Assembly (NCBI GenBank): GCA_900319405.1
Contig: ONOH01000010.1
Span: 1-57,973, forward strand
Origin: an uncultured Bacteroidales bacterium
GTDB taxonomy: Bacteria > Bacteroidota > Bacteroidia > Bacteroidales > UBA932
Direction: 5' to 3'
Length of the DNA: 57,973 nucleotides
Of this stretch, positions 2,045-28,415 are shown in pieces. Positions within the stretch are counted from its first letter, which is position 1. The number at the start of each line of letters is the position of its first letter. The notes under the pieces were generated by a model. That model was not told where the DNA came from. It searched no databases and worked only from the letters and a program-made list of their open reading frames with translations. The position numbers and the translations under genes were made by a program.

Positions 2045-2075
2045 CAAAAATACGGGATTTCCGGCAAAGATGCAA
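2045..2075 (-). promoter_or_regulatory. tRNA-Ala promoter
   Basis: Minus strand TTG (2075-2073), 20 bases, TATTTTTG (2052-2045). The -7 box doubles as the U-tract of the phosphoglucomutase terminator. Confidence 0.75.
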
Positions 2076-11207: not shown

Positions 11208-11240
11208 GTCTCCTATCTTCGATAGGGGACTTGTTTTTTA
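11208..11240 (+). terminator. intrinsic terminator of the TPR-barrel operon
   Basis: 10-base stem (11208-11217 with 11221-11230, one G-U pair), TTC loop, then TTGTTTTTT. Confidence 0.8.
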
Positions 11241-11261
11241 TGGTAAAAATAAGTATCTTTG
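11231..11261 (+). promoter_or_regulatory. gyrB promoter
   Basis: TTG (11231-11233), exactly 20 bases, TATCTTTG (11254-11261); 36 bases before the gyrB ATG. The -33 box overlaps the T-tract of the upstream terminator. Confidence 0.85.
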
Positions 11262-15329: not shown

Positions 15330-15333
<4 letters not shown>

Positions 15334-15360
15334 TAGTTCGGCATATTTTTACTATCTTTG
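15330..15360 (+). promoter_or_regulatory. trigger factor promoter
   Basis: TTG (15330-15332), 20 bases, TATCTTTG (15353-15360), 37 bases before the tig ATG. The TTG overlaps the stop region of the 7TM-HD gene. Confidence 0.85.
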
Positions 15361-21729: not shown

Positions 21730-22101
21730 ATGGCGACGAATTACATAAAAAGCGACGGTAATAAAATCGAGATATGCCTTGAGGTTCTTTTCCAAGAGGA
21801 CAAAGATGGAGTCGTTGTTTCCTTTGCTCCCGCATTAAATCTTTCGGGATGTGGAAGAAGCATACAAGAGGCGAAAGAGTCTTTTCAGATAGTCCTCCGT
21901 GAGTATATTTTATACACAAGGGAACATGGCACGCTGGAAGAAGACCTCATTCGTCATAATTGGACGAAAAGTTCAGTTATGCCTAAGACCGTGTTTACGG
22001 GACTGGAGTTAGATTCAAGCCTTTTTTTCAATGAGCAAGCCAAGCGTATCACTCGCGGGAACTTCTCAAAGTCAAACGAGAGGATTACGATTTCTTGTTA
22101 A
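21730..22101 (+). CDS. HicB-like antitoxin
   Basis: The 123-residue protein has the degenerate RNase H-like HicB fold: a first strand (IKSDGNKIEICLEVLF), then VVSFAPALNLSGCGRSIQEAKESFQIVLREYILY, the standard HicB core. The C-terminal part (from WTKS) resembles other Bacteroidota HicB-like proteins and has no clear ribbon-helix-helix DNA-binding domain. It overlaps the HicA-like gene by one base (TAATG), the usual gene pairing for translational coupling. Here the antitoxin comes first, the less common order. GC content drops sharply at this gene relative to its left neighbour, suggesting acquisition together with the CRISPR genes. Confidence 0.82.
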   Translation: MATNYIKSDGNKIEICLEVLFQEDKDGVVVSFAPALNLSGCGRSIQEAKESFQIVLREYILYTREHGTLEEDLIRHNWTKSSVMPKTVFTGLELDSSLFFNEQAKRITRGNFSKSNERITISC

Positions 22102-22355
22102 TGGGGCAACTGGACAACATATCTATTGAGGTATTTCGGCGCTTCCTTAAGTATCTTGGCTTAGAAAAAGAGTCAATAGAAGGAGGTCATGAGAAGTGGT
22201 CAAAAGACGGAATGACGAGACCAGTTATTGTCCAAACTCATATTAGCCCCGTTAGAAGAACACATATCAAGACGAATCTTGACTCCATTGGTGTCAGTGA
22301 AGACGTCCTTAAAGAATTTCTTAAAAGCAAAAAACAGAAAAAGGGCAAAAAATAG
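22101..22355 (+). CDS. HicA-like mRNA interferase toxin
   Basis: From ATG 22101 the product has 84 residues, typical for HicA, a double-stranded-RNA-binding-fold ribonuclease that cleaves mRNA when free. The catalytic histidine is H30 in ESIEGGHEKWSKDG, and the second half (RPVIVQTHISPVRRTHIKTNLDSIGVS) matches the family strand-helix. The C-terminus is lysine-rich. It is paired with the HicB-like gene and ends 27 bases before the CRISPR array. The start is fixed by the TAATG overlap; the alternative TTG two codons upstream is not needed. Confidence 0.85.
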   Translation: MGQLDNISIEVFRRFLKYLGLEKESIEGGHEKWSKDGMTRPVIVQTHISPVRRTHIKTNLDSIGVSEDVLKEFLKSKKQKKGKK

Positions 22356-22382
22356 CATTTCATTTAACATCCACTCTTTTTT

Positions 22383-23054
22383 TCGGTGATTTGCTTTCAG
22401 ATTTTGTACCTTTGACATTGCAGCAACAGTTGCTGGAGACGCTCTTCGACGCCTTCAAGGGTTGTGATTTGCTTTCAGATTTTGTACCTTTGACATTGCA
22501 GCAACAGCATACCCGAACGAGGGCTCCTATCAGTTCCTGTTGTGATTTGCTTTCAGATTTTGTACCTTTGACATTGCAGCAACAGCGAGCCCCGTTGTAC
22601 GGACGAAGAGCTGTCGGTTGTGATTTGCTTTCAGATTTTGTACCTTTGACATTGCAGCAACAGCAAATTTTGTCTATTAACAGGTACAGCAGTCTGTTGT
22701 GATTTGCTTTCAGATTTTGTACCTTTGACATTGCAGCAACAGCGCCAGATGGCGTCGCCGCTTCCTGCGTCGTGTTGTGATTTGCTTTCAGATTTTGTAC
22801 CTTTGACATTGCAGCAACAGCCCAGGTATTACTACGCCATCAGGCTTTTCGTTGTGATTTGCTTTCAGATTTTGTACCTTTGACATTGCAGCAACAGCAA
22901 ATGAGCCGCGAGGAGCAAAGCGACATTAGTTGTGATTTGCTTTCAGATTTTGTACCTTTGACATTGCAGCAACAGCTAAGTACCTTTGCAAGCGTTTGCA
23001 GCATTAGTTGTGATTTGCTTTCAGATTTTGTACCTTTGACATTGCAGCAACAGC
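22383..23054 (+). CRISPR. type II-C CRISPR array, 9 repeats and 8 spacers
   Basis: A 48-base repeat beginning GTTGTGATTTGCTTTC starts at 22383, 22461, 22539, 22617, 22696, 22774, 22851, 22929 and 23007. Spacers are 29-31 bases. Repeats are identical except the first, whose first three bases are TCG and whose last base is T. The orientation is set by the tracrRNA anti-repeat, which pairs with repeat bases 1-21, so crRNAs read left to right, towards cas2 and opposite to the cas operon. Each intact repeat contains TTG (bases 2-4), 20 bases, TACCTTTG (25-32), a complete Bacteroidota promoter. The repeat resembles those of Bacteroides II-C systems as I remember them. Confidence 0.97.
22462..22492 (+). 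promoter_or_regulatory. repeat-embedded promoter (representative, repeat 2)
   Basis: TTG 22462-22464, 20 bases, TACCTTTG 22485-22492; predicted transcript start about 4-5 bases later, in the last 12 bases of the repeat. The same element recurs in repeats 3-9. Repeat 1 keeps TACCTTTG but lost the TTG. Confidence 0.65.
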
Positions 23055-23107
23055 AAAGTCGGTGTAATTGCTTGATTTTTAGAATGTTAATGCCTATTGT
23101 CGAAAAA

Positions 23108-23137
23108 TAAAATTCAGTCAGAAAAGACTGGATTTTA
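23108..23137. terminator. bidirectional terminator between CRISPR array and cas2
   Basis: 12-base stem (TAAAATTCAGTC 23108-23119 with GACTGGATTTTA 23126-23137, one G-U pair) and AGAAAA loop. On the minus strand it is followed by TTTTATTTTTC, so it can end the cas operon; on the plus strand it could end array transcripts. Confidence 0.75.
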
Positions 23138-23169
23138 TGCTTTATAATGAGTCTTTTTCTTTTCTGTTC

Positions 23170-24430
<1,261 letters not shown>

Positions 24431-24434
<4 letters not shown>

Positions 24435-27400
24435 AGTTCGGCGATTTCTCCCAATAGGTTGACGAGGACTTTGTGGGGATTCAACTTCATAAATGCACCG
24501 ATTCGTGTTCGATAATATTTCTTGCTGGAAAGAGCTTCGGCAGAATCGTCCAAAACCGTTTCCACGTGAAATCGAAAATAATAGTCTTGGGTGGCAATTT
24601 TCTGCACTCGGTACAGGTACTTATTCAGCTGTTTATAGTCCTTCTCCCTGATGGCTCTCTGATAATCCTCCTCTGGCATACCTAGGATAAACATTTCGTT
24701 TTGTTGCAGGCTTGTTTCAAGTTTAAGACCGGCAGGAGGAAGACTGTTTAAGAAATGCTCTGGTAGATTCTTCTTGGCCATCTGATTCCAAAGCACAGCA
24801 GTATCCTCGATAATCACAGGAATTCCGTATTTTTTCCGTTCTACGGCATTCCAGAAGGAGACAACATGCTCGGATAAGTTTCCTGAAGCATCCCGATACA
24901 AGGCGATGTGGTGGTTGTTTCCCAACTTGACGAAACCTACGGGAGTGCACCCTTCGTATTTAACAGGGGCGACAGACTTTTCATTCAACTTAGTGAACAT
25001 CCTTATGCTTTTGATGGGAATAGTCCCGGCTTTATCGGCATAAAGAGGCTCTTTGAATGCTTCTTTTTCTCCAACAGCTTCAATTCGCTCGGCGACAATC
25101 TGACGGATATGCGAATCTACAATATAATCGACATCTTTCTTTTTGATATTAATAAGGGGGTAGCGGATAACGAATTCTTTCTTCCAGCAGGTGGCGTATT
25201 CCAGAGGCTTTGTCTCGTTATCTCCCAGATAAATGGGCTTCTTCTTGAGGGATTTTAGTGCGGCTTTCCAGTCCCCATTATGCTCATTGATGCGTTCTTC
25301 AACTTTCTCTTTGATATAGGGCTTGAAGATGCTTTCAGGTTTTTCGAAAATTACCTTTAAAGGAACGTTATCTTCCAGACAGGAAATGGCGCCATAGATG
25401 CTTTCTTCACTGAGGGCTCCTCTGGGAACTACAATCCCACTTTGTGCGATTGTCCGTTTCCCATTTTTATAAGTGTATCGTTTCCCGAGTGTAGATACGC
25501 GTTTCCCAGCTTTGAAAGAAACAAGAATGCCATCCACCGCTTCCATTACTTTGTCAGTCGGAAGGTGAGGGCGCTCCCTCATCCATTTCTCCAAAAGGGA
25601 ATACTTCTCCTTGACCTCATCTGTCTGGCTCTCAAGTTCACTAAACATCTTATCACGGGATGCATTGAGGTGGTTAAGGCGTTGGATGTAAGACTGTTTC
25701 GTGCTGGCGATGGTTAGGGCATCGATGGCGTGATGACGGTGATCAAGCCTTTTTGTCCATCCCTTTATACGCTTCTCCTGGTGAATCTGCCCACGATGAT
25801 CATAAGTGATGATTTCTGTTTGACCGGCAAAATCATAACGTTCAAAATTTAATTCGTGGAGGATCTTGTCGTAACCCCACTGATGCCTGATAAAATCAGT
25901 TACGCTGCCGCTTGTCGTCCATACATTTCTGCAAACTTGCTTCAGCATTTCAACGGCTTTCTTCGCGATGTATTGTGACTGCCGGAGTTGTCGTTCAATG
26001 AAGTCCACAGGGATATCATCAGCAGTTGTCATTAGTCTTTCGCGTTTGGTCTTGGAGATTTCTTTCCTCTCAAAAGCCTCCTCGATCCGTCTGGTGAAGT
26101 CTTGGAACTCATTTTGCCCTTTTTGCAGCATATAATCATAGGCCGTCCGGTTCCCTTTCTCCGCATTGCACTTACGGCAGGCGCACACCTTGTTGGAGAA
26201 GGAGTCGTCGAAAAAAAGTGAGCGGGGGATGATGTGTTCAATTTCAACATCGGCCCCTTGGAGGAATTCTTTAACGCCAACAGGCTGACCGCAATAGAAG
26301 CAAATATGCTTTGCTTCTTCCCAAAGGCGGTACTTCTGTACTCGGGTTCTCGAGGTGCGGATTCCCATCTCCCGAATACGTGCCTCAATAACCTTGTTCT
26401 CCCTTTCTCTCTTATTGTTATCGAGATAGGCATGATTGCGTTCATCGCGACTTTGTTTTAGTTCGCGAGCTAGTTCAACCCGAACCTCATCGAAACTCCC
26501 GTGTTTGTCCAGCAGAGCGTTCACGATGTTGACCATCTGATTGAGAATTTTCTCAATGACCGGCTGATGGAGATCGTTCTTCTGCAACGGCGTCATATAC
26601 GGGAGTAGTTCCCGGGCATTGTTCTCGGCTTTAGTCAGGCTATTGGAGTGGTTGATATTAATATAGTCACAGGCCTCACTGTATTTCATTCCTTTCTGAA
26701 GATAAGGAAGAATCTGCCGGATGAAACGGGCAGATTTGTTGCCGTATCCGGGCTGGACGAAATCTATCTTGGTCAGGCGCGTGATAATATTCGGGTCTTG
26801 AATCCCGAACTGATGATAAAGTGCGGCAGCCATTTCGGCTGGATCTTCTATAGAATATACGATATGCCAGAGTCGGTATAAAGGTTCTTTCTCGAATTCT
26901 GGAGTGATTTCCTGTAGGATCTCGCCTGTCTCAGTGTCGATGAAGTGTGACCCGGCACTTTTTAACTGAAAAGAGAGCAGGTCTTCGTGTCCCTGCAGTG
27001 CTTTTTTGAGTGCGACTTTAGTGATGTTACCTTGAATCCCTTTTCCGATGGCTTTGCCACCCCACCATTTCTCTTTTACGCTTAGTCCCAGAATCTTTTT
27101 GAGATCCGTTACGGTGAGTTTCTCGTTGTTGTCGAGGAAGTCAAATAATACTTGTCTCTCCTTGGCTGTAAACGGGTAGGATTCTCCATTTCGGTTTTTC
27201 AGTTCTATATTATTAACCGACTCCCAAATCTTGCAGACCTGGAAAAGAGGGGAGGAACGCGGAGCAACTTTAGGACCGGAGATGATGCTTTTCCCGTCGG
27301 CTGTTTTGTATTCTCTCAGAGAAAATTCGCAGCGGCTAATCAGGTGTTTGCAGGATTTTAGTGGCCTCTGGTAGAAAATGATCTCGTCACGCAGGCGACG

Positions 27401-28084
27401 GATAGTTTGGTCTGTCAGGAGTTTGGGGTAATAGACGCGCTGACAAGCAATAATCTGATCGAATTCTTCTTCGTATGCTTTGCGAGGAAAGACCTGATCT
27501 TTGGTGCGGAAGGTATAGAATTGACCCTTATCGGTTGTTATGGCGCTCGCGGACAATTTTTGAGCAAAAAACTGGCCGATGGTCTTTTGTTCTGCCTTGA
27601 TGGTGGCGAACCGGTCATTGATTGCCTGCACATATTCCCTTTGGCTCTTATCTTCTCCTTCGTCGTTTTTGGAATGCCGATACCCTCTCTTTTGGTTTAT
27701 ATGATAGAGAACGCGGCCAATCTCTGGCAACGATAGTTTTTTGCCAGGGGTTGCGGCGTCTGCCCTTAACTGCCATAACTTGAGTACGGGTAGTTTGATA
27801 AGAGCCTCATCTGGGAGCATCCCCAATTTTCTGAGTTCCTCGGTTAAATATTGTCTACGGAGTTGAAAGCGGTCATATCCTTTCCGGATTGTCCGTTTCT
27901 GTGTTCTTTTTTGATTCTTGGATATGGCATTGCCGGAAGAAAATTCATTCGTGTCATCCGTGCTAAGGGGAACAATGCGACTACCAATCCCCAGGATGGC
28001 TTGTGGATTTCCATCATTGTCCGTTTGGATAAGGCACCAACCTATAGAACCGACACCAAGATCAAGGCCGAGTATTTTTTTCAT
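24431..28084 (-). CDS. cas9: CRISPR-associated endonuclease Cas9, subtype II-C
   Basis: The 1217-residue RNA-guided nuclease appears intact. RuvC-I is ILGLDLGVGSIGW with catalytic D8; the arginine-rich bridge helix RKGYDRFQLRRQYL is at about 67-80; RuvC-II VRVELARELKQS is near 536; the HNH core EIEHIIPRSLFFDD has its catalytic histidine near 617, flanked by two Cys-x2-Cys pairs (CFYC near 598, CRKC near 634) that suggest a bound zinc; RuvC-III HHAIDALTIAS is near 785. Codon use and low GC contrast with the flanking housekeeping genes. The predicted mRNA leader of about 110 bases is antisense to the tracrRNA. Confidence 0.98.
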
Positions 28085-28090
28085 AGTTTT

Positions 28091-28120
28091 TTGAAAGAAA
28101 AAGAAATATTCTTATATTTG
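28091..28120 (+). promoter_or_regulatory. tracrRNA promoter
   Basis: TTG 28091-28093 (within a T run), 19 bases, TATATTTG 28113-28120. Predicted start at about 28125, one base before the anti-repeat. Confidence 0.8.
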
Positions 28121-28124
28121 CACA

Positions 28125-28199
28125 CAATCTGAAGCAAATCACAATAAGGATTATTCCGTTGTGAAAACATTCAAGGCGGGGAGTAATCTTCGCCTTTTT
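28125..28199 (+). ncRNA. tracrRNA
   Basis: The anti-repeat AATCTGAAGCAAATCACAAT at 28126-28145 is complementary to repeat bases 1-21 with one bulged repeat base and one terminal G-U pair. It is followed by a small nexus-like stem (GGATTATTCC, 28148-28157), a linker, and a terminal hairpin AAGGCG/CGCCTT with a T-tract. The roughly 75-base RNA lies divergently upstream of cas9 and would guide crRNA loading into Cas9. The compact size fits II-C tracrRNAs. Confidence 0.88.
28173..28199 (+). terminator. tracrRNA terminator hairpin
   Basis: AAGGCG (28173-28178) pairs with CGCCTT (28191-28196) around a 12-base loop, followed by TTT to 28199. Confidence 0.75.
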
Positions 28200-28200
28200 A

Positions 28201-28232
28201 CAAAAATAGTGATTTGTTTCGACCTTTACAAA
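28201..28232 (-). promoter_or_regulatory. predicted cas9 operon promoter
   Basis: Minus strand TTTG (28232-28229), exactly 20 bases, TATTTTTG (28208-28201). No other TAnnTTTG is seen on this strand between here and the cas9 ATG. Predicted start near 28196, inside the tracrRNA terminator. Confidence 0.6.
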
Positions 28233-28383: not shown

Positions 28384-28415
28384 CAAAGATATGTAATCTT
28401 TTTGTTCTTTCCAAA
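28384..28415 (-). promoter_or_regulatory. tRNA-Val promoter
   Basis: Minus strand TTTG (28415-28412), 20 bases, TATCTTTG (28391-28384), ending 10 bases before the tRNA 5' end. Confidence 0.85.

What the first reader, a model, noticed from the sequence alone, without database searches (positions are those of the whole stretch)
22383..23054. Every intact CRISPR repeat carries a complete Bacteroidota promoter
Seen: repeat bases 2-4 are TTG and 25-32 are TACCTTTG, with exactly 20 bases between. The same spacing and -7 sequence class is found upstream of gyrB, tig, tRNA-Val and tRNA-Ala in this window. Known: Neisseria and Campylobacter type II-C repeats contain promoters, so crRNAs arise without processing by RNase III. 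Inference: this Bacteroidota array does the same with the phylum-specific promoter, starting transcripts in the last 12 bases of each repeat. The Bacteroides II-C repeat I remember also has TATCTTTG in its core, so it may be a general property.
Basis: partly seen in the sequence, partly recalled or inferred. Interest (0 to 1): 0.8.

Follow-up and report, generated by a model that had tools for sequence, protein, structure and literature searches.

The report
Promoter inside every CRISPR repeat
In this bacterium and most of its sampled relatives, the repeated unit of the CRISPR immune memory carries what looks like the group's own start signal for RNA synthesis, so each memory could be switched on separately; this was known in two distant bacteria with a different signal and is not yet shown by RNA data here.

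Summary
All nine repeats (48 nt, 22383-23054, +) carry TACCTTTG at bases 25-32. Eight carry TTG at 2-4, 20 nt upstream; the decayed first copy has lost it. The quoted gyrB, tig and tRNA promoters also have N20.

Among 111 type II arrays (window included), those of the window's class whose repeat runs against cas9 carry TTG-N18-21-TAnnTTTG in 51 of 79, against 0 of 10 arrays running with cas9 and 2 of 22 from other classes of the phylum. Eight arrays of other phyla lack TAnnTTTG; all end in TAnnnT, like a sigma70 -10. On the Cas9 tree the box changes as a promoter should: TA and TT nearly fixed, the two free bases variable. tracrRNA pairing does not explain it.

Best reading: repeat-embedded promoters as in Campylobacter, rewritten for the Bacteroidota sigma factor, starting transcripts 12 nt before each spacer. 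There are no RNA data, 23 of 79 arrays lack an exact box, and the RNase III clause is not supported. Repeat promoters were proposed before for two Flavobacterium species, from the TTG alone.

The parts
22383..23054 (+). type II CRISPR array, 9 repeats of 48 nt and 8 spacers; repeat runs opposite to the cas genes
22383..22430 (+). leader-distal first repeat, decayed at bases 1-3: -7 box TACCTTTG (22407-22414) kept, -33 TTG lost
22461..22508 (+). first intact repeat; the other intact copies start at 22539, 22617, 22696, 22774, 22851, 22929, 23007
22462..22464 (+). -33 TTG of the repeat starting 22461 (repeat bases 2-4)
22485..22492 (+). -7 box TACCTTTG of the repeat starting 22461 (repeat bases 25-32)
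22497..22497 (+). predicted transcript start (repeat base 37), 12 nt before spacer 2; assumes -7 box at -12 to -5 (PMC9723704, passages)
   Evidence: inference
23055..23169 (.). leader side: DNA between last repeat and cas2, where new spacers enter in R. anatipestifer II-C
   Evidence: insertion side from PMC6008519 (passages), inference here
23170..23547 (-). cas2
   Evidence: TIGR01573
23499..24434 (-). cas1
   Evidence: TIGR03639
24431..28084 (-). cas9, 1217 aa
   Evidence: (TIGR01865)
28091..28120 (+). tracrRNA promoter TTG-N19-TATATTTG; predicted start 28125
28125..28199 (+). predicted tracrRNA: anti-repeat 28125-28144, then tail ending in GGCGGGGAGTAATCTTCGCC-TTTTT
   Evidence: (sequence); ends are inference
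28201..28231 (-). probable cas operon promoter TTG-N20-TATTTTTG, predicted start 28196, overlapping the tracrRNA gene end
   Evidence: role is inference
11231..11261 (+). comparison promoter of gyrB, TTG-N20-TATCTTTG
15330..15360 (+). comparison promoter of tig, TTG-N20-TATCTTTG
28384..28414 (-). comparison promoter of tRNA-Val, TTG-N20-TATCTTTG
2045..2075 (-). comparison promoter of tRNA-Ala, TTG-N20-TATTTTTG

Best explanation
Each repeat is at once crRNA handle, integration unit and promoter. The primary Bacteroidota sigma factor reads TTG (bases 2-4, -33) and TACCTTTG (bases 25-32, -7) and starts RNA at about base 37. Each primary transcript then has 12 nt of repeat, the 30-nt spacer and the 5' half of the next repeat. 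A tracrRNA transcribed from its own promoter of the same kind pairs with repeat bases 2 to about 25; RNase III or another nuclease makes the 3' end and the 5' tag is probably trimmed. Shown here by sequence: motif, spacing, conservation pattern, phyletic limits, array direction and position of the anti-repeat. Inferred: transcript starts, trimming and RNase III. Further inference: because new spacers are expected to enter at the 3' end, read-through from all upstream repeats should favour the newest spacers.
For: (1) Enrichment: 51 of 79 with TTG-N18-21-TAnnTTTG, 56 of 79 with TAnnTTTG at any spacing, 0 of 79 on the reverse strand; shuffle expectation 0.20 against 31 for N19-21; reversed-repeat control 5 of 79 against 51. 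(2) Spacing fits the hosts: in about 1.7 Mb of non-array DNA of the class loci and window, TTG-Nk-TAnnTTTG counts are 59, 94 and 97 at k=18, 19, 20 against 41 per spacing, after removing repeat-like matches. Repeats: 20, 21 and 7 at k=18, 19, 20. (3) Fewest changes per column on the Cas9 tree: T6 A4 n13 n19 T1 T2 T15 G13, next three columns 25, 37, 33; similar on the Cas1 tree. (4) tracrRNA pairing overlaps the 8-nt box by 0-3 nt in 38 of 41 loci, at most 5. (5) Arrays oriented with cas9: box in 0 of 10 repeats, but TAnnTTTG in the 150 nt before the array in 7 of 10; class arrays against cas9: 11 of 61; random DNA 7%. (6) Other phyla: 0 of 8 with TAnnTTTG, 8 of 8 ending TAnnnT (counted by eye), against 4 of 79 ending so in the class's against-cas9 arrays. 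(7) Predicted start to spacer is 12 nt in 37 of 56, 13 in 8, 8-11 in 11. (8) The leader-distal repeat decays in its 5' half (372 mismatches) and keeps the half with the box (49), 69 arrays (one of them partly masked N). (9) A strict external promoter is rare upstream: 4 of 76 against-cas9 arrays.
Against: No transcript data. 23 of 79 class arrays lack an exact TAnnTTTG (e.g. TATCTTAG, TATTTTTA), and single-mismatch boxes show no clear enrichment in host DNA (ratios 0.89-1.16). Many repeats use N18, only mildly favoured by hosts; N22 is as mildly raised (57). In the 10 leaders of arrays running with cas9 no TTG stands at N18-20 (0 of 10), so the leader box is only half a promoter. Lost TTGs of decayed first repeats are not clearly replaced (4 of 22 against about 2 expected). 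Decay of the 5' half is also seen in out-of-class arrays (63 against 8 mismatches in 15). Out-of-class hosts with raised TTG-N19-TAnnTTTG counts have repeats without the box at promoter spacing (G385, G267, G349, G023). Agreement of the two free bases with host preference is weak once leaked repeats are removed (rho 0.47, p 0.06, or 0.58, p 0.02). The R. anatipestifer authors reported no promoter in their 47-nt repeat. Orientation changed only 3 times on each tree, so that contrast rests on few events.
Confidence: 0.82

Rival explanations
1. The box is kept for Cas1-Cas2 integration or another DNA-binding role, not for transcription.
For: The box usually lies 16 nt from the repeat's 3' end (37 of 56), as a ruler element might. 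The 3' half is kept in first repeats also in arrays without the box.
Against: A fixed-sequence protein site would not be expected to leave exactly the two sigma-free bases variable. The 10 arrays running with cas9 lack it although cas1 and cas2 lie beside them. Eight arrays of other phyla show a sigma70-like -10 at the repeat end instead.
Confidence: 0.08
2. One external promoter or read-through drives the array; the box is an inherited relic or chance.
For: Two ORFs (21730-22101, 22095-22355) run toward the array on the same strand and end 27 nt before it. F. columnare RNA-seq had only eight reads on the array (PMC8092290, passages).
Against: A strict promoter within 160 nt upstream in only 4 of 76 against-cas9 arrays of all sampled lineages of the phylum. 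The box is slow-evolving next to fast-evolving neighbours, which a relic would not be.
Confidence: 0.07
3. The box is conserved because the RNA segment pairs with tracrRNA or folds.
For: Repeat and tracrRNA must match in the repeat's 5' half (general knowledge of type II systems).
Against: Complementarity ends at repeat base 24.5 in the median of 58 loci; 38 of 41 loci with the box overlap it by 0-3 nt only. Predicted tracrRNA starts lie within 4 nt of the anti-repeat start in 44 of 44 loci with a box there, so the primary tracrRNA would not reach further. RNA folding of the segment was not tested.
Confidence: 0.03

Closest known systems
Type II-C array of Campylobacter jejuni (Dugar 2013, PMC3656092, passages) and Neisseria meningitidis (Zhang 2013, recalled; paper not held)
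   Same: cas9-cas1-cas2; promoter element in the 3' part of each repeat, so that each spacer is transcribed separately
   Different: In C. jejuni an extended -10 (GGTAAAAT) forms the last bases of the repeat and RNA starts at position five of the spacer. Here the box is TAnnTTTG at bases 25-32 of a longer repeat, and the predicted start is 12 nt before the spacer.
Flavobacterium columnare II-C array (Hoikkala 2021, PMC8092290) and F. psychrophilum CN46 (Li 2023, PMC10309648), passages of both
   Same: Same phylum; authors proposed repeat-encoded promoters from the TTG 33-35 bp before each spacer; F. columnare transcripts run toward the leader
   Different: In the passages read the -7 box was not reported in the repeat; TAnnTTTG was noted in F. 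psychrophilum only for cas9.
Riemerella anatipestifer CRISPR1 (Wang 2016, PMC5006608, passages)
   Same: II-C, 47-nt repeat beginning GTTG, leader beside cas2
   Different: The authors state that no potential promoters were found in the repeats; the predictor named for the leaders was a general one. The repeat sequence is not in the text I could search, so I could not re-test it.

Membership tests
Type II-C CRISPR-Cas | cas9, cas1 and cas2 only, with type II Cas1 | tested here: met
   TIGR01865, TIGR03639, TIGR01573 over cut-off; of the neighbours, the two ORFs before the array have no family match; ORFs upstream of cas9 beyond the tRNA were not searched for csn2 or cas4
Type II-C CRISPR-Cas | tracrRNA with anti-repeat near the cas genes | tested here: met
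   anti-repeat at 28125-28144, + strand
Type II-C CRISPR-Cas | Cas9 falls in the II-C clade | not tested
   no reference II-A or II-B Cas9 was placed on the tree
Repeat-embedded crRNA promoters (Campylobacter/Neisseria kind) | promoter element of the host's main sigma factor within every repeat | tested here: met
   -7 box in 9 of 9 repeats, -33 in 8 of 9; by sequence only
Repeat-embedded crRNA promoters (Campylobacter/Neisseria kind) | array runs against the cas operon, toward the leader | tested here: met
   which end acquires spacers was not observed here
Repeat-embedded crRNA promoters (Campylobacter/Neisseria kind) | a transcript start at every repeat or spacer | not testable with these tools
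   needs 5'-end RNA data
Repeat-embedded crRNA promoters (Campylobacter/Neisseria kind) | RNase III not required (Neisseria only) | not testable with these tools
   C. jejuni needs it for the 3' end
Bacteroidota primary sigma promoter | TAnnTTTG with TTG at the host's spacing | tested here: met
   window N20; host peak N18-20

The most novel reading that the evidence does not exclude
II-C repeats are written in the sigma-factor dialect of their host phylum. A TAnnTTTG box with a start 12 nt before the spacer in Bacteroidia, and a sigma70 -10 at the repeat end elsewhere, are two solutions to one design. The extra ~11 nt of the Bacteroidia repeat would be the room this promoter needs. The dialect would then limit transfer of II-C arrays between phyla, and promoters in every repeat of an array that grows at its 3' end would give the newest spacers the most transcription.
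Probability: 0.45. Interest if true: 0.75.

Novelty: new variant of a known kind. Interest (0 to 1): 0.6.

Why it matters
It would extend individually promoted crRNAs from two well-studied examples to most sampled II-C-like arrays of a major gut and environmental group. It predicts exact RNA 5' ends that existing 5'-end data sets could check at once. It offers a reason why these repeats are 45-49 nt rather than 36 nt, and it questions the view (R. anatipestifer) that such repeats hold no promoter. It also suggests the sigma factor as a barrier to moving II-C arrays between phyla.

Tried and rejected
Host dialect from whole-genome counts: TTG-N19-TAnnTTTG exceeds its mirrored control in 12 of 12 class genomes and in 14 of 21 out-of-class genomes (both strands summed), but array copies inflate some counts and the link to the repeat type is loose. 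A sigma70 pattern (TTGACA-N17-TAnnnT) gave no usable signal in 33 genomes, so I make no claim from it.

Host preference at the two free bases: first result rho 0.54-0.60 with TC best. I then found that 84 repeat-like matches had leaked through the array mask; without them TA is best and the correlation is weaker. The corrected numbers are used. The pooled spacing profile has the same leak and is replaced; the window profile was masked separately over 22201-23200 and agrees. The single-mismatch ratios were not recomputed.

Replacement of a lost -33 TTG in decayed first repeats: 4 of 22 against about 2 expected (one of the 22, L078, is masked N), not used. In decayed first repeats whose consensus has the box, it is kept exactly in 18 of 25. 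The mirror test in arrays running with cas9 (7 arrays, 0 mismatches in the 5' half and 10 in the 3' half) rests mainly on one array, L084.

Spacer targets: eight scans of viral contigs, one per spacer, each with a 23- or 24-nt part; only spacer 7 hit, with a full 30-nt match in the surrounding sequence. One target gives no PAM.

Rows dropped: 31 of 140 fetched regions had no array by my finder. I took 100 of the 149 genomes with Cas9 of the order draw and 40 of the 65 over cut-off of the phylum draw. Six of the 14 non-Bacteroidota plasmid loci had no array; of 56 plasmid records matched I fetched 17. Group names such as class Bacteroidia are inferred: the genome tool gives kinship without names, and the nearest named relative is a Bacteroidales MAG (a single-protein scan that found one locus).

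Full report
What is there. The window holds a type II CRISPR locus. cas9 (24431-28084), cas1 (23499-24434) and cas2 (23170-23547) are on the - strand. Beyond cas2 lies an array of nine repeats on the + strand (22383-23054), so the repeat runs against the cas genes. The repeat is best read as 48 nt with 29-31 nt spacers. A tracrRNA gene lies just upstream of cas9 on the + strand, with its own promoter TTG-N19-TATATTTG and a predicted start at 28125, at the edge of the anti-repeat.

The observation. TACCTTTG stands at repeat bases 25-32 in 9 of 9 copies and TTG at 2-4 in 8 of 9, with exactly 20 bases between. The first copy, farthest from cas2, is changed in its first three bases. In the window outside the array the match count peaks at N20 (6, against 0-2 at each other spacing from 10 to 32).

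Is it chance? Shuffling the repeat after base 11 gives 0.20 expected matches (N19-21) among 79 repeats; 31 were found. Reversing bases 5 to end gives 5 of 79 at N18-21, against 51.

The comparison set. Cas9 (TIGR01865) was sought in 395 genomes of the phylum (65 over cut-off) and 393 of the order (149). An array was found and Cas9 located in 111 loci, window included. 89 loci are of this class and 22 of other classes of the phylum.

Two kinds of array. In 79 of the 89 class members the repeat runs against cas9, in 10 it runs with it. Of the 79, 56 carry TAnnTTTG, 51 of them with TTG 18-21 bases upstream and 48 with 18-20; none has it on the other strand. Of the 10, none has it (Fisher p 2e-5). 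Instead 7 of these 10 have TAnnTTTG in the 150 nt before the first repeat, against 11 of 61 in the first group and 7% of random stretches (p 0.002). None of those 10 leaders has a TTG at N18-20, however. So the box tends to be in the repeat where the array runs toward the leader, and before the array where it runs away from it. These tests treat loci as independent; on the Cas9 and Cas1 trees orientation changed 3 times and the box 22 and 19 times, so the orientation contrast rests on few events.

Promoter-like change. In the alignment of the 79 repeats the box lies in ungapped columns. Fewest changes on the Cas9 tree are 6, 4, 13, 19, 1, 2, 15, 13 for T, A, n, n, T, T, T, G; the next three columns have 25, 37 and 33. 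TA and the first two T are nearly fixed while the two bases that the consensus leaves free vary. The last T and G are less constant than the consensus would suggest. The TTG has 0-2 changes per base, but the 111 repeats begin GTTG or GCTG with or without the box, so this is weak evidence.

Spacing. Measured without the arrays and without repeat-like matches, TTG-Nk-TAnnTTTG in the class's own DNA is raised at k = 19 (94) and 20 (97), mildly at 18 (59) and 22 (57), against 41 per spacing. Repeats use 18 (20), 19 (21), 20 (7), 21 (3), 22 (3) and 23 (1). The fit is good but repeats lean to the short side.

Not tracrRNA. Of 73 class against-cas9 loci with an anti-repeat candidate, 58 have it beside cas9 on the opposite strand. 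There complementarity ends at repeat base 24.5 in the median; where the repeat has the box it overlaps it by 0-3 nt in 38 of 41 and by at most 5. 44 of the 58 have TAnnTTTG upstream, 28 of these with TTG at N18-21, and predicted starts within 4 nt of the anti-repeat in all 44.

Geometry. Taking the -7 box at -12 to -5 (PMC9723704, passages), the predicted start is 12 nt before the spacer in 37 of 56 repeats, 13 in 8, 8-11 in 11. Repeat lengths of 46, 47 and 48 thus differ mainly between -33 and -7.

Ends of the arrays. In 69 class arrays the repeat farthest from the leader has 372 mismatches in its 5' half and 49 in its 3' half (one copy, L078, is partly masked N and counted). Where the consensus has the box, 18 of 25 decayed copies keep it exactly. 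The decayed copy loses the tracrRNA handle, which it does not need, and keeps the half that would start the first spacer. The same is true of out-of-class arrays (63 against 8 in 15 arrays), so this supports promoters in repeats generally, or simple decay of the outer half. A strict promoter before the first repeat exists in 4 of 76 against-cas9 arrays of the whole set.

Other lineages. Outside the class 2 of 22 have TTG-N18-21-TAnnTTTG and 6 of 22 TAnnTTTG at any place. Of 15 repeats of 36 nt there, 7 end in TAnnnT, against 4 of 79 in the class's against-cas9 arrays. Of 17 named plasmid loci, 11 had an array. Three are Bacteroidota: Prevotella nigrescens and Phocaeicola massiliensis have TATCTTTG at base 24, Persicobacter has only TACCTTTC. 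Eight are of other phyla (Alpha- and Betaproteobacteria, Bdellovibrionota, Clostridia, Fusobacteria): 0 have TAnnTTTG on either strand, and 8 of 8 end in TAnnnT (counted by eye), e.g. TACAAT and TATAAT. This matches the C. jejuni repeat end GGTAAAAT (PMC3656092, passages).

What does not fit. 23 of 79 class arrays lack an exact box. Single-mismatch boxes are not clearly enriched in host DNA (0.89-1.16). Some out-of-class hosts with raised TTG-N19-TAnnTTTG counts have repeats without the box at promoter spacing (G385, G267, G349, G023). Free-base preference agrees only weakly with the hosts. There is no RNA evidence here.

Mechanism. Most likely each repeat starts its own transcript at base 37; tracrRNA pairs with the handle of the next repeat; a nuclease makes the 3' end.

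Literature. Searches found repeat-encoded promoters proposed for F. columnare (PMC8092290; TTG only, eight array reads) and F. psychrophilum (PMC10309648; TTG in the repeat, TAnnTTTG named for cas9), read as passages, and a statement that R. anatipestifer repeats have none (PMC5006608, passages). In those searches I found no report of TAnnTTTG within II-C repeats; subscription papers were not searchable.

After checking against the calls, some facts were mended (plasmid loci without array, distance of the upstream ORFs, leader result, host DNA amount); none required a change of odds.

Noticed in passing
window 21730-22355 (+): Two small overlapping ORFs ending 27 nt before the array on the same strand; they look like a HicB/HicA toxin-antitoxin pair (recalled likeness; no Pfam, NCBIfam or PADLOC match). 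Read-through into the array is possible.
   Followed up: partly
window 22977-23006 (spacer 8): The leader-side, presumably newest spacer contains TACCTTTG itself, with a TTG 20 nt upstream inside the repeat: a second promoter-like site by chance or from a targeted promoter.
   Followed up: no
L197 8814-8843; window 22899-22928 (spacer 7): Spacer 7 matches a viral contig (IMGVR_UViG_3300028805_002217) over all 30 nt, followed by AGGACGTGGG.
   Followed up: partly
window 28191-28231: The probable cas9 promoter (- strand, start 28196) overlaps the 3' end and terminator of the tracrRNA gene on the other strand.
   Followed up: no
L082-L085, L087, L092, L096, L100, L135, L152: A second type II group in the same class with 36-37 nt repeats (GTTGTGGTTTGAT... 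in 7 of 10) that run with cas9 and have TAnnTTTG about 90-130 nt before the array in 7 of 10.
   Followed up: partly
L067, L071, L120, L138: Four repeats have CGATCTTTGACA near the 3' end and no exact box at the usual place; whether this is a shifted, altered promoter is open.
   Followed up: no
G000:C41:9502-9837: A second, short HNH-like Cas9 match in the window's genome (275-aa frame, below cut-off).
   Followed up: no
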